From Ignavibacteria bacterium (lineage in GTDB: Bacteria; Bacteroidota; Ignavibacteria; Ch128b): a stretch of 64,000 nucleotides of DNA. Positions 8,261 through 56,966 of the stretch are shown piece after piece. The stretch is taken from the NCBI GenBank assembly GCA_013177855.1, contig JABLYA010000002.1, positions 124,001-188,000 on the forward strand. The letters run 5' to 3'. Position 1 is the first letter of the stretch. Each line of letters starts with the position of its first letter. The notes beneath the pieces were generated by a model. It had not been told where the DNA came from. It did not search any database and was given only the letters and a program-made list of their open reading frames with translations. The position numbers and the translations under genes are program-made.

Positions 8261-9037
8261 ATGCCTAAATTCAAATTGACAATTGAATACGAAGGGACAC
8301 GATACAGCGGCTGGCAAATACAGAGAAATGCAAGAACAATTCAGGGTGAAATTATTGGTGCAATCAAAAAAGTTTTTGCGACAAACGATTTTGATTTTCA
8401 AGGTGCTGGCAGAACCGATGCTGGAGTTCATGCATTAAATCAAATAGCTCATCTCGATGTAAAAACAAATCTTTCGGAAGACAAAATTAAATTTGCACTG
8501 AACGATAATTTGCCCTCTGATATAAATATTCTGGCTGTCGAAAAAGTAAATAAATCATTTCACGCTAGAAAAGATGCGAAATATCGCTCATACCTTTATA
8601 TCATCAGTAAGAGACGAACTGCTTTTGCAAAGAAATTTGTTTGGTGGATAAAGGACGAGCTTAATTTTGAAAAAATGAATCTCGCTTCCAGGCACTTCAT
8701 TGGTCTAAAAAATTTTCAATCATTTGCTGATATAGACGATGAAGAAAAATCAACATTGGTTAAAATAGAAGATGTGCAGTTGAAAGAAGAAGGCTCGTTG
8801 ATTTTGATTAGAGTTATTGGTTCACATTTCCTCTGGAAAATGGTCAGAAGAATGGTTGGTGTGTTAGTCGAAATTGGCAGAGAAAATCTTACTGAAACTG
8901 AATTAATTAAAATGTTTGAATCAAATACAGATTTACCTTTAAAATTTACAGCCCCACCATCTGGATTATATCTTGAAAATGTTTTCTATTCGAATAATTA
9001 TAAGCTTCCTGAATTAAAATCCTGGATCAAATTATAG
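8261..9037 (+). CDS. truA: tRNA pseudouridine(38-40) synthase TruA
   Basis: TruA isomerises uridines 38-40 in tRNA anticodon arms. The 258-residue protein is full length. The catalytic aspartate is D53 in the signature GAGRTDAGVHA. The N-terminus, KLTIEYEGTRYSGWQIQ, is typical. It lies 83 bases after argS and is closed by the 9045-9084 hairpin. Confidence 0.97.
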   Translation: MPKFKLTIEYEGTRYSGWQIQRNARTIQGEIIGAIKKVFATNDFDFQGAGRTDAGVHALNQIAHLDVKTNLSEDKIKFALNDNLPSDINILAVEKVNKSFHARKDAKYRSYLYIISKRRTAFAKKFVWWIKDELNFEKMNLASRHFIGLKNFQSFADIDDEEKSTLVKIEDVQLKEEGSLILIRVIGSHFLWKMVRRMVGVLVEIGRENLTETELIKMFESNTDLPLKFTAPPSGLYLENVFYSNNYKLPELKSWIKL

Positions 9038-13443: not shown

Positions 13444-13527
13444 TTCTCATCAATTTATCTGTGGAACATTAAGAATTTTATGGAGATTTTTTTCCAGCTA
13501 TACGACATTTCGAAAATTATTTAGAAT

Positions 13528-46501: not shown

Positions 46502-47815
46502 TCAATCGAAGTTCTCAATTTCACCAAAACATTCAGTAAAAATCTTGTAATAAAAATATTCTTCTTTTGATCTTAAAACTGAATTCGATTTTGTTTTTCT
46601 CTGAGATCTGAATTCTTCATCTGAAATTTTAAAATCCGCATATTCAGAAATCAAATTCTTTACATTTGAACCTTCCCAGAATTTTTCTTTCTTTCGTTTA
46701 ATAATTTTATCAGGCAAAACATCCTCAAAGGCTTTTCTCAAAATCCATTTTTCAATTCCATTTTTAATTTTTAATTCTGGTGGAATTTTAACTGCAAACT
46801 TTATTATTTCAGAAACAGCAAAAGGTACTATTGCCTGAACACCGAAAGACATTGAGCATCTATCAACTCGCTGGAGTGCAGTATTGTGCAGAACATTTAT
46901 CAGGGCATTTAGTTCAGCCGGCAAATCACTTAGATTAAAAGTTTTCAAATAAGAATACCCTGCAAATAATTCATCTCCTCCTTCTCCAGAGAAGACATAA
47001 TCAATGTATTCAAATGCTTTCTTAGTAATCATATAATTAATCACTGACGATCGCACAAGATAAACGTCAAAAGATTCGAGTGCGTAAATAACTTCTGGCA
47101 ATTCCTTTAATATCTCATCGATTGAAACAATAATCTCAAAATGTTTGGTCTTTAAATGTTCAGCCATTAAAGAAGCATATTGCAAATCAGATGAACCTTT
47201 AAGTCCTCCACTGAATGTATATAAATCCGGATAAAATTTGCTTACGATTTTTGCAATGATACTTGAATCCAAACCGCCGCTCAACCATGAGCCAATCTTT
47301 CCTTTATAAATTCTTTTTGAAATTGTTTGTTCAATTAAATCTTTTAATTTTTTGCCAATCGAGATTTCGTCTAATTCTAAAAAAACATTATCAGTATTTA
47401 CTACATCTGTCGAGTTAATTTTATTGTCTTGAAAAATGCTTCCTGGTTTTAGCTCATTAATTTTGTGCGTTATTCCAATTAAAGCTTTAATTTCAGATGC
47501 GAAAACTAAACTTCCATCATTTGTATAACCAAAATAGAGTGGAGCAACCCCTGGATAATCCCTTTCCAATACTAATGAGCCGTTTATTTCCCTTGCTCTA
47601 GCAAAGTGATCATCAAAAATGTTTTGTTCAACAAATTTTTCTTTTTCGAATTTATCAAATTCTTCATCAGTCAATGTATTCGATACAATTCCAAATGTAG
47701 AATGTTCGGTTGAAAATACCTTTTGATTTTTCCAGTTTTTATAAGGAAATTTAATCAGCATATCTTTAATAAGATCAAACCGCTCAGGCTTGTTTATTCC
47801 TACTATTCTTGTCAT
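46502..47815 (-). CDS. Asparagine-synthetase-like protein without glutaminase cysteine
   Basis: A 437-residue ATP-dependent amide-former of the AsnB family. The C-terminal synthetase domain is intact: PP-loop SGGLDSS (179-185), FSGEGGDELFAGY. The N-terminal glutaminase domain is cut to about 120 residues (only the end, YPGVAPLYF ... FASEIKAL, is clear) and starts MTRIVGIN where MCGI is expected. The start is fixed by AAAGGAG 8 bases upstream, so Cys2 is really absent. It would use free ammonia or an amine. It is the third gene of the opine-dehydrogenase/B12 operon. Confidence 0.85.
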   Translation of the reverse strand: MTRIVGINKPERFDLIKDMLIKFPYKNWKNQKVFSTEHSTFGIVSNTLTDEEFDKFEKEKFVEQNIFDDHFARAREINGSLVLERDYPGVAPLYFGYTNDGSLVFASEIKALIGITHKINELKPGSIFQDNKINSTDVVNTDNVFLELDEISIGKKLKDLIEQTISKRIYKGKIGSWLSGGLDSSIIAKIVSKFYPDLYTFSGGLKGSSDLQYASLMAEHLKTKHFEIIVSIDEILKELPEVIYALESFDVYLVRSSVINYMITKKAFEYIDYVFSGEGGDELFAGYSYLKTFNLSDLPAELNALINVLHNTALQRVDRCSMSFGVQAIVPFAVSEIIKFAVKIPPELKIKNGIEKWILRKAFEDVLPDKIIKRKKEKFWEGSNVKNLISEYADFKISDEEFRSQRKTKSNSVLRSKEEYFYYKIFTECFGEIENFD

Positions 47816-47830
47816 CTAAAAACGCTCCTT

Positions 47831-49468
47831 TCATTTGAGATACTTTTTAAGCCTCTGCTTTTCTTTAATAATTTTACCTGTTCTTGGGTTAACCGCAAAC
47901 CATGCGCCGTTAATCAGATTTGTTTTGATTCTACCACACAGGTGCGGATTTCCTATAAAATGCGGAGTATCTAAAATTCCCTCTTTAATTGCTTTTGCCA
48001 GCACTTTTGGATCTGCAAGTGGATCATCACTCATATTTCTTCCAAAGTTCTTAATTGCCTCAAGAATTATCTTTGCTTCTTTCTTAAGTTCATCTTTTCG
48101 TTTCTTTAATCTTTTATCATTTGAAATATCTGGTAAACCATTCAAAACATTTTTTATTACTCCATGAGCAATCTTACAACTCTCAATTAATTCTTCTGGA
48201 TAAACAGCGTGATCGCCTTCACAATAAGCAACTACATGAAGAATGTGCGGTTTCATATAAAGGGTTATTAAGATTGATGCAGCAAGTTGACCCTTTGCTA
48301 TATCTGGATCAGGAGAAAAGTGAGCGATACCAGATCTTACCTCACGATAAAAATCAAAATTTTCATCTTTTAATTCTTCAATCAACTCATTCTTGGCCAT
48401 CATTTTTGCCAGATCCATTTGTGGACTTGTTCCAGGCGGAGTATTAAACATAAATTGGGCAACATATTTTTTAACACCCATCTTTTTTGCGTTGTAAGCC
48501 GCAAGATAAGCGGTCGCAACTGCCAGCGAATCGTGAGCGTCTCTCAGACTCCATTGATGAGATTCATTTACTTCGACTGGAATATTTCTTTCAGCGTACC
48601 ATTTCATTGCCTGTTGATTTTCAGCAATTGAAATTTCAAGAGGTCGAGTGGATCTTCCATCCATTACACTGTACCAGGTTAATGGAATAGCAGCCCAGGC
48701 ATTATTAATTGTCTCAACTGACATTTCCGCCCATTTAATCAAATCATTTGTCCCACTATAACATCTCATCAATGGATAATTGCCTGTTCTCGATGCTTCA
48801 TAAATTGCTTTTAAATCTTCAGGTTTACGAACAGGAACTCCACCTGCACCATCAAGTTCTTTTCTCATCAGCTCTGGTCTGAAGAAAAATTCTTGAGCGT
48901 TCTGGTCCGTTCCCAGTGAAATAACATCGAGGACCTGTGCTTCTGCAATTTTTCGGGCACCTTCTATCGTTTCTTCAAGTGTGGGTCTGCCAAAGTGATG
49001 TCTTAAAATTGGATAAGGATATTTTTGTTTTATTCTTTCCTCGAGTGTTTGAGGATAGAGCTGTTCCCCTCGTTCTAAGGTTTGTCCTCTGAGATAAGAA
49101 ATCACATAATTTTGATCCTCTGTTCCATCAAAAACTTTTGAAAAGAATGAAAATTTTCTGGCAACCTCAGCAACACTTGTTGTTCCTCCAAAGATGAAAT
49201 TCTTTTCTTTTAAAAATGGATTTTTTTTAATTAGTTCTTCTAGAGATTTAAAAATATTCTCTGCAACTTCTGGCGTTAATCTATAACTTAAAGCAATTAT
49301 ATCGGGATTATATTTTTTAATTTCTTTAAAGAGTCTTTCAAGGGGGACAGCAGGACCTAGAGAGATTGTTTTAAAGCCTTCGAGTTCTGCTAATTGAAGA
49401 AAGTGATTTAAACCGCCAATGTGTACACAATTTCCGAGTGCACAACCTATAATAATTTTCTTTTTCAT
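47831..49468 (-). CDS. B12-binding-domain protein with mutase-like TIM barrel
   Basis: A 545-residue cytoplasmic protein. The first 130 residues form a cobalamin-binding-like Rossmann domain: IIIGCALGNCVHIGGLNHFL puts the cobalt-ligand His at 16, then DIIALSYRLT and FGGTTSV. The Asp of the usual DxHxxG motif is Cys14. The rest is probably a TIM barrel (GARKIAEAQVLDVISLGTDQ, VNESHQWSLRDAHDSLAVAT, NTPPGTSPQMDLAKMMA), somewhat like glutamate-mutase E chains. It overlaps the dehydrogenase gene by 4 bases and is 15 bases from the synthetase-like gene. The substrate and the B12 form are not known. Confidence 0.7.
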   Translation of the reverse strand: MKKKIIIGCALGNCVHIGGLNHFLQLAELEGFKTISLGPAVPLERLFKEIKKYNPDIIALSYRLTPEVAENIFKSLEELIKKNPFLKEKNFIFGGTTSVAEVARKFSFFSKVFDGTEDQNYVISYLRGQTLERGEQLYPQTLEERIKQKYPYPILRHHFGRPTLEETIEGARKIAEAQVLDVISLGTDQNAQEFFFRPELMRKELDGAGGVPVRKPEDLKAIYEASRTGNYPLMRCYSGTNDLIKWAEMSVETINNAWAAIPLTWYSVMDGRSTRPLEISIAENQQAMKWYAERNIPVEVNESHQWSLRDAHDSLAVATAYLAAYNAKKMGVKKYVAQFMFNTPPGTSPQMDLAKMMAKNELIEELKDENFDFYREVRSGIAHFSPDPDIAKGQLAASILITLYMKPHILHVVAYCEGDHAVYPEELIESCKIAHGVIKNVLNGLPDISNDKRLKKRKDELKKEAKIILEAIKNFGRNMSDDPLADPKVLAKAIKEGILDTPHFIGNPHLCGRIKTNLINGAWFAVNPRTGKIIKEKQRLKKYLK

Positions 49469-50568
49469 AACTTTTCTCCTATTGCTAATAGTCTTAATTC
49501 TCTTAAAGAAAGGTCGGCTATATTCAATCTCTCAACTGTTCTTCCAATCTCCCAATAATCTGTCTGATTCAACAAAGAAGCCAGATGTATTAAGGAATTT
49601 ATTGTTGGAGTTTCAACACCTAATTTTTTACCAACTGATGCGATCGGGACAAGACTTGTTGGAACATCTTCGGTCAAGTATCTCATATTTAATCGTTTAG
49701 GAGCAAGTATTCCTCTATACCCTGGATTTGCCATCATAGCATCGTAGAGTGTATCACCTGATGCACTATAAGCTAAGTATAACCATTCCCTGGCAGTCAA
49801 AGACCTTATTCCCAGTGCTTCTGCAACCTTGACTCTTTCACTATCAACTTCTTCAAGTACTTTAGCAACCGAAGGAGTTACCCCTTGAACATAAAACTGA
49901 AAATCAGATACATCTTCAATCCAACCTGCGTTCAATATACACAAAGTTGGATGAAAGACTGCTCCAATGTTATCAAAACTTGTTTTGAATATATTATCAC
50001 CAGGAACAAATTGAGGATATGCAATCCTCAGTTTCTTTAAAACTTCTGGAATAAGATGAGCTCTAATTGATGCAATTGGGATAGAATTTTTAATTCTGAA
50101 AATTTTTGCCTGTCCGGGTCCTATAGCCCTCGATGCATAAATAAAAGTTTGTGTTTCAGCTAGAATGACATCTGTTTTTATGTTCATTGAATTCAAAACT
50201 TGTTTAAATTCTAACGCCCCAAAAGTTCTGCCAGGGTTTAAAACTATTATCTGCCCATCTTTCAAATGGGGTCCCATCTGTTCAGCTATAAACCTGTGAG
50301 CTGTCGCAGGAACCACTATCATTATTATGTCAACATTTTCAATGGCTTCTTTCATATCGGTAGTTGCAATCCGAATCTCTCCAAATCCTTCCAGGCCAAA
50401 ATCACTTTCTATTCTAATTCCACCCGTAGATTTTACACCCCATAATCTCTCTTCACTTCTGTTATAGAGATTAACTTCGAAACCCATAATAGCAAGGTGA
50501 CCTGCCATTGCTAGTCCTCCATGGCCTGCACCGATTACCGCAAACTTAGGTTTGGGATTCTCTGACAT
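49465..50568 (-). CDS. Opine-dehydrogenase-family NAD(P) oxidoreductase
   Basis: A 367-residue protein of the octopine/nopaline dehydrogenase family. It has an N-terminal NAD-binding domain with GAGHGGLAMAGHLA and a C-terminal opine domain with NIGAVFHPTLCILNAGW, which holds the probable catalytic His. Such enzymes reductively join an amino acid to a keto acid, or run the reverse. Its ATG follows GGAGGAG (about 6 bases). It heads the operon with the B12 protein. Confidence 0.85.
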   Translation of the reverse strand: MSENPKPKFAVIGAGHGGLAMAGHLAIMGFEVNLYNRSEERLWGVKSTGGIRIESDFGLEGFGEIRIATTDMKEAIENVDIIMIVVPATAHRFIAEQMGPHLKDGQIIVLNPGRTFGALEFKQVLNSMNIKTDVILAETQTFIYASRAIGPGQAKIFRIKNSIPIASIRAHLIPEVLKKLRIAYPQFVPGDNIFKTSFDNIGAVFHPTLCILNAGWIEDVSDFQFYVQGVTPSVAKVLEEVDSERVKVAEALGIRSLTAREWLYLAYSASGDTLYDAMMANPGYRGILAPKRLNMRYLTEDVPTSLVPIASVGKKLGVETPTINSLIHLASLLNQTDYWEIGRTVERLNIADLSLRELRLLAIGEKL

Positions 50569-50760: not shown

Positions 50761-51381
50761 TTACTTAATCTTGATATCTAAAATTGGATACTTTTCCCAG
50801 CCTTTGTAATCGAAATGCCACCACTCTGTTCGCATCGGAAGAAAATTAAATTTCGTCATCGCTTCTTGAAGTATTTTTCTATTCTGCAAAACTCTTTCAG
50901 GCAGATTTTTATAATCGATGTGTGATTTCTCTGTGAAATCATCATAAGGCGTTCCCATATCCAATTCGTTCCCCAGCGAATCTACAAGCGTTAAATCAAC
51001 TGCACATCCTCGATTATGCCTCGAACCTTTTGCAGGATTTGCAACATATCTTTCATCAGGCATAATTGCCCACATTTTTTTCTGAACGGAAAGCGGGCGA
51101 TATCCATCAAAAATTTTTAATCTTAAATTGTATTTCTTTTTTAAATATTGATTGACTTTTACAAGTGACTCGGAAGCTTCTTTGATCAAATACACTTTGT
51201 TAGTTTCATAAAGTTTTTGACCTGTAAAGTTATTTTCAGTAGCGTATCGAACATCAACTAAAATTGTTGAATCTAGTTCTTGAATATTTACAAGTCTACT
51301 GATCTGTGAAAAAACCGAATTGTTTATAAAAAGGAAACATATAATCAGGTAAAAAGATATAAGCCAGTTGTTATTTGTCAT
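50761..51381 (-). CDS. D-Ala-D-Ala dipeptidase (VanX/DdpX-like)
   Basis: A 206-residue exported zinc dipeptidase of family M15D. It has a signal peptide (MTNNNWLISFYLIICFLFI, then NNSVFSQ) and the zinc/catalytic motifs SRHNRGCAVD and EWWHFD. The ATG at 51379-51381 is preceded by AGAGG, better placed than a longer start at 51408. Periplasmic DdpX-type enzymes recycle D-Ala-D-Ala; VanX-type act in vancomycin resistance, but no van genes are here. It is divergent from the TonB receptor at 51492. Confidence 0.88.
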   Translation of the reverse strand: MTNNNWLISFYLIICFLFINNSVFSQISRLVNIQELDSTILVDVRYATENNFTGQKLYETNKVYLIKEASESLVKVNQYLKKKYNLRLKIFDGYRPLSVQKKMWAIMPDERYVANPAKGSRHNRGCAVDLTLVDSLGNELDMGTPYDDFTEKSHIDYKNLPERVLQNRKILQEAMTKFNFLPMRTEWWHFDYKGWEKYPILDIKIK

Positions 51382-51491
51382 AAATACCTCTTTTAATTTA
51401 GTTCGCATTTTAAGAACAATATTCTAAATATTTTTGTTTTAAACCAGAACCACAAATTATTGTCAAAAGAAAAATAAAAATGAGGAGATAT

Positions 51492-54422: not shown

Positions 54423-56060
54423 ATGATAAAAAATCAGCCCGAAGTATCTTTAAGAATAAGAAATTTTCGAAGTTTTGAAGATATTACGATTCAACTTAAA
54501 CCAATAGTGCTTTTTTTTGGGAATAATGGCTCAGGTAAAAGCTCACTTATAAAAGCTACAAGATTTTTCTTTTATAATTTATTTAATGCAGGATATTCTG
54601 GAGCTCCATTATCTGACGAAAAAAATTTAAGTTTTAACTTTGAAGATATAAATTTATTTTCTTTTAAGGATACTGTATTAAATAATGATGTTAGTAAAGT
54701 AATGTTTTTTGAATTGACGATGAAAAATGCGAGAGGTATTTTTTATTCTATTCCTAATGATTTAAGACATTTAATTAAAAAACATAAAATATATGAAAAT
54801 GAAGATGAATTTCGTGAAGAAACAAAAAATTTAAGCTTTAAAGTTTTTTTAAGAATATCTCAGGAAAAAGAAAAATTGTTTTTTTCTTTTGGAATTTATG
54901 ACCTAAAAACCAATGAAATATATTACCTTGATAAAATCGATACTTGCAATGATTTGGAGTCTTATTTACAAAATAAACATCTATTCATGAATAATTATAC
55001 CAATAAAATTATTAACCCCTTTTTAGATGCATCTTTTGATTTAGTTTTTGAAGAATTAAACATTATCTTACACCAAAAAGAATACAAAAGAAAAATAAAA
55101 ATAGTTAAATCTTATTGTAAGAAGTTAATAAAATTTAGATATATAATTCCAAGCATATGCTTTAGTTATTTTGGCGATAAAAAATCATTTGAGAATATTC
55201 CAGCTATAAGAGAGAAACCTAAAAAATATTTTGATTTAGAAGGTAACGTCTTTAAATACAATGATTATTATTACATACCTTATCTTTATTGTACTTCTGA
55301 CAGAAAATATCAGAAATTGGGAACCATTTCAACTAGTAATGATAAACAACCCATTCGTAAAAAAGTTATAGAAAAACCTTCTAAAAACCATAATACTCTG
55401 CAAAAAACTTATAGTGATCTAGAATACTATAATCCTTGGATTTTAATAAATTTTGAAATTAAAGAAATGGGCTTAGCAAGTAAACTAATCGTGCATAAAA
55501 ATAACGAATTAGGCATAGGATGGATTGAATATGTGTCTATAGATGGTAAAAGTAAATCCAATTTAACCGAAGCCTGCAGTGGATTACTTCAGATTTTACC
55601 TATATTAGGTGTTATTCTTGAAAAAGAAGAAAATCCATTGAATTCACCTAGGCTTGTAATAGTGTCAATTGAACAACCTGAACTTCATTTACATCCAAAA
55701 TTACAATCACAATTGGTTGATTATTTTTTAAGATATCTGGATTTTACTTTTAATCAGATAATTACTTACTTAATTATTGAAACCCATAGTGAGCATTTTC
55801 TTAAAAAACTTCAAGTACTGATTGCAAATGATTTCGAGCTGCCTACACATTTTGATAATGAAGTGAGTAAACCTAAATTAAAAGACCTTGTTAAGATTTA
55901 TTTTTTTGATAAAAACGATGAAAATGGTATAACAAAACTAAAAGAAATTGAAATTCTTGATAATGGCTTTTTGAAGGAACCTTTCCCGGAAGGTTTTTTT
56001 GATGAATCAACCGAACTTGAATTTTCACTACTTAAAGCACAATTAAAAAGAAAAGATTAA
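54423..56060 (+). CDS. OLD/DUF3696-like AAA ATPase, candidate defence ATPase
   Basis: A 545-residue ABC/SMC-type ATPase. The Walker A motif GNNGSGKS is at 33-40. A signature-like TEACSGLLQ lies near 380, a Walker-B/D-loop SIEQPELHLHP near 415-425 and ETHSEH near 453-458. The end LKEPFPEGFFDES is typical of DUF3696 proteins. Such ATPases power defence systems such as Septu and Gabija or repair. DNA here is visibly more A/T-rich than neighbours. It is followed after 6 bases by the partner gene. No TOPRIM domain is seen. Confidence 0.8.
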   Translation: MIKNQPEVSLRIRNFRSFEDITIQLKPIVLFFGNNGSGKSSLIKATRFFFYNLFNAGYSGAPLSDEKNLSFNFEDINLFSFKDTVLNNDVSKVMFFELTMKNARGIFYSIPNDLRHLIKKHKIYENEDEFREETKNLSFKVFLRISQEKEKLFFSFGIYDLKTNEIYYLDKIDTCNDLESYLQNKHLFMNNYTNKIINPFLDASFDLVFEELNIILHQKEYKRKIKIVKSYCKKLIKFRYIIPSICFSYFGDKKSFENIPAIREKPKKYFDLEGNVFKYNDYYYIPYLYCTSDRKYQKLGTISTSNDKQPIRKKVIEKPSKNHNTLQKTYSDLEYYNPWILINFEIKEMGLASKLIVHKNNELGIGWIEYVSIDGKSKSNLTEACSGLLQILPILGVILEKEENPLNSPRLVIVSIEQPELHLHPKLQSQLVDYFLRYLDFTFNQIITYLIIETHSEHFLKKLQVLIANDFELPTHFDNEVSKPKLKDLVKIYFFDKNDENGITKLKEIEILDNGFLKEPFPEGFFDESTELEFSLLKAQLKRKD

Positions 56061-56066
56061 TTAATA

Positions 56067-56966
56067 ATGAAACAGCCAATTGTATTAGATCCAGATGTTA
56101 TTTTTACGCTCTTAAACAATCGTGATGTTTTAGACAATGGGTACAATTTTTTTCGCTTGATAAAAATTTTAAAACAACATCACATAATAGTATTTGACAA
56201 CAACAGCGGTACATCAATTTGGCTAAATGAATTCGAAAAAATTAAAAATTCACTTAAAAACAAATACGAATCTCAATTTTTAAATTATATCAATCCCAAA
56301 CATCTCAACTTTGCATTCTACATAATCAATAGTGATCAAAAAAATTTCTTGTTTGAATTAGCTCAAAAAACACCCGAAAAAATTGGTATCAAGTACGAAA
56401 GTCTAAAAAAGGATAAAATTATTTTTTACGACATAGAATATTTTAACAGTGATAACAACAATGATATTGAAAACTTTTTGCTAAGAGACAATAAAACAAT
56501 TGAACTAAGCATAGGCACAACGATTTCTGATTTCCGTCTTTTTTCCCCATATGTGCGGGAAGCTCAGCAAATTGAAATTTGTGATAAATATTTTATGATT
56601 AATCCAAATTACGATGACGATCTTAATTTCATTTTGAGCATTGTAAAAAAATCTAAAAAATTAAATAAACTAATTTTTCATATAAACTTTGATGAAGATA
56701 ACCAACTAAATGATTATAAAAAGGAATTAATTTTTAGCCGAGCAAGGGAATTTTTTGGAGAAAAAGCGATCGAGCTTGAATTTTATCTTTATAATTCGGA
56801 GTTAAATCATGACAGATTTATATTAATAGACACGAATAAATTTTCAATAAAATTCACCACAAGCTTTAATAACTTTAGGAAAATTAATGAGAATACTTTT
56901 AGAGTAGCTAAAGCCTGCTCTATAATTTTTACAACCGGTCGAAAGTATTTTGATAATTCTCATTAG
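56067..56966 (+). CDS. Partner protein with MIT_C/phospholipase-D-like C-terminus
   Basis: A 299-residue protein. The first 65 residues look like an alpha/beta unit (IVLDPDVIFTLLNNRDVLDN) of unsure family. Residues about 175-295 resemble the MIT_C domain, a degenerate phospholipase-D fold: IEICDKYFMINPNYDDDLNF, then NHDRFILID with HDR at 248-250. The usual HxKxxxxD motif is absent. It is translated with the ATPase (6-base gap) and has the same A/T-rich, Asn/Lys/Phe-rich style. It could be the effector of a two-gene system; function is not proven. Confidence 0.65.
   Translation: MKQPIVLDPDVIFTLLNNRDVLDNGYNFFRLIKILKQHHIIVFDNNSGTSIWLNEFEKIKNSLKNKYESQFLNYINPKHLNFAFYIINSDQKNFLFELAQKTPEKIGIKYESLKKDKIIFYDIEYFNSDNNNDIENFLLRDNKTIELSIGTTISDFRLFSPYVREAQQIEICDKYFMINPNYDDDLNFILSIVKKSKKLNKLIFHINFDEDNQLNDYKKELIFSRAREFFGEKAIELEFYLYNSELNHDRFILIDTNKFSIKFTTSFNNFRKINENTFRVAKACSIIFTTGRKYFDNSH

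What the first reader, a model, noticed from the sequence alone, without database searches (positions are those of the whole stretch)
46502..50568. Opine dehydrogenase / B12-domain / ammonia-type synthetase operon
Seen: three genes in one direction, with overlaps and gaps of 4 and 15 bases, coding for an octopine-dehydrogenase-family enzyme, a B12-domain plus TIM-barrel-like protein, and an AsnB-like protein without Cys2. Known: each family acts on amino acids. Inference: a pathway in which a carbon-skeleton or amino rearrangement is linked to an opine-like oxidation or reduction and an ATP-driven amide or amine step. I know of no described pathway with this trio.
Basis: partly seen in the sequence, partly recalled or inferred. 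Interest (0 to 1): 0.72.

Follow-up and report, generated by a model that had tools for sequence, protein, structure and literature searches.

The report
Opine–B12 mutase stress-solute operon
Three adjacent genes encode a conserved, uncharacterised pathway in which an opine-type dehydrogenase and a vitamin-B12 radical mutase make an unusual amino acid that a third enzyme turns into an amide, and in related microbes the operon is wired to salt/osmotic-stress switches, so it probably makes a new protective solute.

Summary
The trio is real and correctly placed. The middle gene is a fused B12 radical mutase: N-terminal Rossmann domain with invariant axial His, plus a barrel whose closest solved fold is glutamate mutase E (Z 33.9, 371 residues, 18% identity). 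The dehydrogenase (ODH) and mutase are an ancient pair: same-strand neighbours in 71 of 81 loci across bacteria and archaea, and present in exactly the same 5 of 395 genomes of the phylum. The AsnB-like gene is an optional third part (31 loci); 16 loci carry a Ddl-like ATP-grasp ligase instead, none has both. New functional evidence: a c-di-AMP riboswitch lies 90-672 nt upstream of the operon in 15 of 45 relatives scanned, with none elsewhere in 695 kb. One locus has nhaA-I riboswitches before both ODH-mutase and the AsnB-like gene. MscS channels, Na+/H+ exchangers, MarC-type transporters and trehalose genes recur next door. Best reading: NADPH-driven opine-type step, AdoCbl rearrangement, then amidation, giving an osmoprotective solute; in some surface-glycan clusters the module probably feeds glycan decoration. 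Substrate and step order are not shown, and the window itself has no riboswitch. The pair was noted in 2009 (PMC2626281), role unknown.

The parts
49465..50568 (-). Opine-type dehydrogenase (Octopine_DH family, 367 aa); catalytic His206/Asp301 invariant in 71/71 homologues; 'NR' after beta-2 suggests NADPH
47831..49468 (-). Fused B12 radical mutase (545 aa), 4-nt overlap with the ODH gene
49079..49468 (-). B12-binding Rossmann domain (residues 1-130); C14-x-H16-x-x-G19 in place of DxHxxG; axial His16 invariant 59/59
47843..49063 (-). Glutamate-mutase-E-like barrel and tail (residues 136-542)
46502..47815 (-). AsnB-type ammonia-dependent amide synthetase (437 aa); GATase remnant without Cys2; SGGLDSS PP-loop and E278 kept

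Best explanation
The operon makes an unusual, opine-like amino-acid solute, most likely for osmotic or ion-stress protection. Proposed mechanism: (1) ODH uses NADPH to condense a keto acid with an amino acid (or reduces a related imine); (2) the fused AdoCbl mutase, using a 5'-deoxyadenosyl radical and the His16-ligated corrinoid, shifts a group between adjacent carbons as glutamate mutase does, on a substrate other than glutamate, possibly the opine itself; (3) the AsnB-like enzyme activates a carboxylate with ATP as an acyl-adenylate and amidates it with ammonia, lowering net charge. Shown by computation: gene anatomy, folds, conservation, pairing, ligase exchange, and riboswitch and neighbour associations in relatives. 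Inferred: substrates, step order, cofactor choice, and the osmotic role in the window's own organism.
For: Mutase: best solved folds are glutamate mutase E (Z 33.9), aminomutases (Z 28-32) and methylmalonyl-CoA mutases (Z about 23); axial His 59/59; one relative passes the PF06368 cut-off; MutL, the glutamate-mutase reactivase family, lies between ODH and mutase in L054; the own genome has an adenosyltransferase. Coupling: ODH next to mutase in 71/81 loci; the same 5 of 395 genomes hold both. Biosynthetic direction: N36-R37 in place of the Asp at the cofactor ribose; ATP-consuming ligases attached: AsnB-like in 31 loci, Ddl-like ATP-grasp in 16, never both, with AsnB-like genes scattered over several branches. 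Ammonia as nucleophile: some AsnB-like copies keep Cys2, and the acceptor-site Glu278 is kept 32/32. Osmotic role: 15 c-di-AMP riboswitches in 45 relatives, all just upstream and in sense, one with promoter-like site, aptamer, terminator-like stem, then ODH; nhaA-I RNAs before ODH and before the AsnB-like gene in L041, with a Na+/H+ exchanger between; in-operon neighbours versus distant genes: MarC 7 v 0, MscS beta-domain 5 v 0, Na/H exchanger 2 v 0, trehalose synthase (GT20) 2 v 0.
Against: The window has no riboswitch and its immediate neighbours are not osmotic genes. The metabolite has never been observed and the substrate is unknown. Many loci are related by descent, so neighbour and riboswitch counts are not independent. 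c-di-AMP riboswitches also control cell-wall genes (PMC9960051). Some copies sit in surface-glycan clusters, which is not an osmolyte role. The own genome lacks MutL.
Confidence: 0.6

Rival explanations
1. Fermentative amino-acid degradation: the mutase rearranges an amino acid and ODH then oxidises the product, as in ornithine/lysine fermentation (aminomutase plus dehydrogenase).
For: Mutase-plus-NAD(P)-dehydrogenase pairing resembles those pathways (established knowledge); carriers are mostly anaerobes; racemase-like gene in three loci.
Against: No PLP-Lys in the Rossmann domain; NADPH-type ODH site; ATP-spending ligases in place of thiolases/CoA-transferases; c-di-AMP and nhaA-I riboswitches; glycan-cluster copies.
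Confidence: 0.12
2. Cell-envelope precursor pathway: the module makes an unusual acid or amino acid for peptidoglycan or surface glycan, joined by Ddl-like or other ATP-grasp ligases.
For: Surface-glycan clusters with ATP-grasp, DegT, glycosyltransferases and flippases; Ddl-like ligase and racemase-like genes; c-di-AMP riboswitches also control wall genes (PMC9960051); M15 D-Ala-D-Ala dipeptidase upstream in the window.
Against: The pair or its mutase occurs in archaea without murein (L081 Methanoculleus, L042; mutase in L064, L065); AsnB-type primary-amide step in 31 loci; MscS, Na/H exchanger and trehalose neighbours; the M15 gene is not conserved next to the trio.
Confidence: 0.2
3. It is an ordinary glutamate mutase making 3-methylaspartate, with ODH and AsnB-like acting on methylaspartate.
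For: Closest fold is glutamate mutase E; a relative passes PF06368; MutL in one operon.
Against: The three arginines that hold glutamate (R66, R100, R149; PMC10947579) align with invariant His158, Gln192 and Tyr237 (alignment weak, probability 45%); the window protein has no PF06368 hit; two of the carrier genomes have a separate canonical MutE.
Confidence: 0.08

Closest known systems
Glutamate mutase (MutS/MutE; PF06368, PDB 1cb7/6h9e)
   Same: B12 Rossmann domain plus barrel with a C-terminal extension; axial His; order S-then-E as in a fusion; MutL neighbour in one relative
   Different: Single chain; CxHxxG instead of DxHxxG in 55/59; arginine claw not conserved; 18% identity; no MutL in own genome
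Ornithine 4,5- and lysine 5,6-aminomutase
   Same: Same barrel and B12 domain type (Z 28-32)
   Different: No PLP lysine; domain order differs; linked to ODH and amide ligase instead of fermentation enzymes
Arthrobacter N-(1-D-carboxyethyl)-L-norvaline dehydrogenase (1bg6)
   Same: Full-length match, catalytic His and Asp kept
   Different: Asn-Arg in place of the Asp of the NAD site (NADPH-type, inferred); nearly always beside the mutase
Asparagine synthetase B (1ct9)
   Same: PP-loop and SGEGxDE acceptor motif kept
   Different: Shortened GATase without Cys2, so ammonia-dependent; substrate not aspartate by inference
NAGGN osmolyte operon (TIGR03104 amidotransferase)
   Same: AsnB-family amidation making a net-neutral solute; the family scores third here
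   Different: No B12 mutase or opine dehydrogenase
Octopine dehydrogenase + B12-binding operon Hore_09740-09750 (PMC2626281)
   Same: By its description almost certainly the same pair, reported in several thermophilic anaerobes
   Different: No function, riboswitch, fold or ligase link was given; sequence not compared here

Membership tests
Octopine/opine dehydrogenase | PF02317 over curated cut-off plus NAD(P) Rossmann | tested here: met
   158.8 bits vs 30
Octopine/opine dehydrogenase | Catalytic His-Asp pair | tested here: met
   His206 and Asp301 71/71, aligned with 1bg6
Octopine/opine dehydrogenase | Reductive condensation of amino acid and keto acid | not testable with these tools
   needs enzyme assay
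AdoCbl-dependent mutase superfamily | B12 Rossmann domain with axial His in DxHxxG | tested here: met
   His16 59/59, Gly19 58/59; the Asp is replaced by Cys in 55/59
AdoCbl-dependent mutase superfamily | TIM barrel of mutase type | tested here: met
   Z 33.9 to 1cb7_B, rmsd 2.9, 371 residues
Glutamate mutase | Arginine claw R66/R100/R149 | tested here: not met
   aligned with H158/Q192/Y237 (weak profile alignment, strands in register)
Glutamate mutase | PF06368 over cut-off | tested here: inconclusive
   no hit for the window protein; Methanoculleus member 27.6 vs 26.6 bits
Glutamate mutase | MutL partner | tested here: inconclusive
   absent from own genome; in the operon of L054
PLP aminomutase (OAM/LAM) | Conserved PLP-binding Lys in the Rossmann domain | tested here: not met
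   no Lys at 80% or more in residues 1-140
Asparagine synthetase B | Synthetase domain with PP-loop and SGEGxDE | tested here: met
   SGGxDS, Glu278, Asp281, Glu282 32/32
Asparagine synthetase B | N-terminal Cys2 for glutamine hydrolysis | tested here: not met
   MTRIVG in the window; kept in a minority of copies
Beta-lactam/carbapenam synthetase | Tyr in place of the AsnB Glu348 | tested here: not met
   Glu278 32/32; role of the Tyr from general knowledge
c-di-AMP-controlled osmo-regulon | c-di-AMP riboswitch upstream | tested here: inconclusive
   15/45 relatives; absent in the window

The most novel reading that the evidence does not exclude
An 'opine mutase': an AdoCbl radical enzyme that acts on the opine made by its partner dehydrogenase, giving a new class of amidated, charge-neutral compatible solute controlled by c-di-AMP and ion riboswitches in deep-branching anaerobes, and reused with ATP-grasp ligases to decorate surface glycans.
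Probability: 0.3. Interest if true: 0.88.

Novelty: new variant of a known kind. Interest (0 to 1): 0.72.

Why it matters
New AdoCbl radical-mutase reactions are rare, and no solute pathway that I know of uses one. A pair conserved across bacteria and archaea, noted in 2009 with unknown role, now has a testable function: it should make a solute that rises when c-di-AMP falls or salt rises. That gives a concrete target for metabolomics, for enzymology of the mutase, and for explaining how many uncultured anaerobes cope with osmotic stress.

Tried and rejected
Canonical glutamate mutase: claw residues not conserved. PLP aminomutase: no conserved Lys. Lactam formation as in clavulanate/carbapenem synthesis: the acceptor Glu is kept and some copies keep Cys2, so ammonia is the likely nucleophile. 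Reading the three genes as an obligate trio: the AsnB-like gene is missing in 50 of 81 loci. Cobalamin riboswitch control: none found at Rfam gathering scores in the window or 45 loci. Literature: no paper in the library links opine dehydrogenase to compatible solutes or the ydaO riboswitch, and the only paper with 'glutamate mutase' and 'opine' is unrelated; the original c-di-AMP riboswitch paper is not held, so its gene lists could not be checked. The residue mapping to glutamate mutase rests on a weak profile alignment, as model coordinates were not used.
Full report
OBSERVATION. ODH matches Octopine_DH (E 1.3e-46) and, over its full length, Arthrobacter N-(1-D-carboxyethyl)-L-norvaline dehydrogenase (E 6e-75). 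The AsnB-like protein keeps the synthetase domain (E 2.7e-60; best solved relative E. coli AsnB) and a shortened GATase part without Cys2. The middle protein has only a weak single-sequence B12-binding match.

WHAT THE MIDDLE GENE IS. A profile of 59 relatives finds many corrinoid proteins for residues 1-130. The AlphaFold2 model is confident (pLDDT 94, pTM 0.84). Its best solved matches are glutamate mutase E (VIA Z 33.9, rmsd 2.9 A, 371 residues, 18% identity), lysine and ornithine aminomutases (Z 28-32) and methylmalonyl-CoA mutases (about 23). The axial His16 is invariant in 59/59; the usual Asp of DxHxxG is Cys in 55/59. No lysine is conserved in the Rossmann domain, so the PLP aminomutase type is not supported. 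A profile alignment with canonical MutE (probability 45%, E 3.5e-5, strands in register) puts His158, Gln192 and Tyr237, all invariant, at the three arginines of glutamate mutase's substrate claw (claw residues from PMC10947579). New invariant arginines (156, 235, 272, 309, 378) suggest an anionic but different substrate (inference). The organism has a PduO-type adenosyltransferase but no MutL and no canonical MutE. One relative, L054, has MutL between ODH and mutase, and the Methanoculleus member passes the PF06368 cut-off.

CONSERVATION. A scan of 84,980 species genomes found 251 relatives; the best 80 come from Ignavibacteria and other Bacteroidota, Acidobacteriota, Armatimonadota, Atribacteria, Omnitrophota, Bacillota, Caldisericota, Thermotogota and archaea. 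ODH is the same-strand neighbour within 400 nt in 71 of 81 loci. In 395 genomes of the phylum the same five hold ODH and mutase. The AsnB-like gene is next to the pair in 31 loci; a Ddl-like ATP-grasp ligase is there in 16 others; never both (Fisher p 2e-4 on the 67 loci with enough flank, not corrected for kinship). On the mutase tree AsnB-like genes appear in several separate branches. A minority of AsnB-like copies keep Cys2, and Glu278 (AsnB Glu348) is kept in 32/32, so ammonia, free or from glutamine, is the likely nucleophile.

REGULATION AND CONTEXT. Rfam scans of 45 loci (695,615 bases) found 15 c-di-AMP riboswitches (63-106 bits, cut-off 38), every one 90-672 nt upstream of the operon and in sense, none elsewhere. 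In Fusibacter sp. 3D3 (L089) a promoter-like site, the aptamer (8633-8780), a terminator-like stem with T-tail (8794-8821) and the ODH start (8846) follow in order, as in known OFF switches (OFF-switch description in PMC9960051). In L041 an nhaA-I RNA lies 46 nt before ODH and a second 240 nt before the AsnB-like gene, with a Na+/H+ exchanger-type gene between (the family was named on its L040 homologue). Genes in the same operon, compared with distant genes of the same loci, are rich in MarC-type transporters (7 v 0), MscS channels (5 v 0), Ddl-like ligases (15 v 0), Na/H exchangers (2 v 0) and GT20 trehalose synthases (2 v 0); L060 has the trio, MscS, trehalose synthase and phosphatase in one direction. 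The osmotic idea was formed from neighbours before the riboswitch scan was run. The window itself has no riboswitch; its role is inferred by homology.

A SECOND SETTING. In Bacteroidota surface-glycan clusters (L015, L132, L133, L134) the pair sits with glycosyltransferases, sugar aminotransferase, flippase or polymerase-like genes and an ATP-grasp-like ligase (the ligases of L133 and L134 were recognised by eye from their N-terminal sequence only). Opines amide-linked to amino sugars are known (alanopine in Providencia O35; title cited in PMC10609480). So the core module supplies a carboxylic acid that three different ligases can turn into an amide (inference).

MECHANISM. Most likely: NADPH-dependent opine-type condensation (N36-R37 replaces the NAD-site Asp of 1bg6), radical 1,2-rearrangement, then amidation to a charge-neutral solute. 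Gene order fits ODH, mutase, ligase, but the order of steps and the substrates are inference.

PRIOR ART. The Halothermothrix orenii genome paper (PMC2626281) noted an octopine dehydrogenase/cobalamin-binding operon in several thermophilic anaerobes with unknown role. A Thermoanaerobacter octopine dehydrogenase was up-regulated in an ethanol-stressed strain (PMC3751872); its mutase partner was not checked here. I found no description of function, fold, ligase exchange or riboswitch control in the held library.

Noticed in passing
window 50761-51408 (-): D-Ala-D-Ala dipeptidase-like (peptidase M15) gene 192 nt upstream of ODH on the same strand; not conserved next to the trio in relatives.
   Followed up: partly
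window 54423-56966 (+): AAA ATPase gene (545 aa; best PADLOC match NsnB, E 2e-37) followed by a 299-aa gene with a weak BrxL C-terminal match: possible two-gene defence system.
   Followed up: partly
L041:8760-8813 and 13453-13505: Two nhaA-I RNAs, one before ODH-mutase and one before a separate AsnB-like gene, flanking a CBS protein and a Na+/H+ exchanger-type gene.
   Followed up: yes
L077:5861-5943: c-di-GMP-I-GGC riboswitch before a 634-aa gene that runs with 36-nt spacing into the Ddl-like ligase/ODH/mutase operon; another second messenger may control this copy.
   Followed up: no
L054:1864-3249: MutL reactivase gene (PF13941, E 5.5e-166) between ODH and mutase; the same genome also has a canonical MutE (L112).
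   Followed up: partly
L132-L135, L015: ODH-mutase pairs in surface-glycan clusters, a second use of the module; in L135 it is next to two sulfotransferase-like genes.
   Followed up: partly
L055, L059, L062: Mutase, Ddl-like ligase and alanine-racemase-family gene in a row, suggesting a D-amino acid partner in these copies.
   Followed up: no
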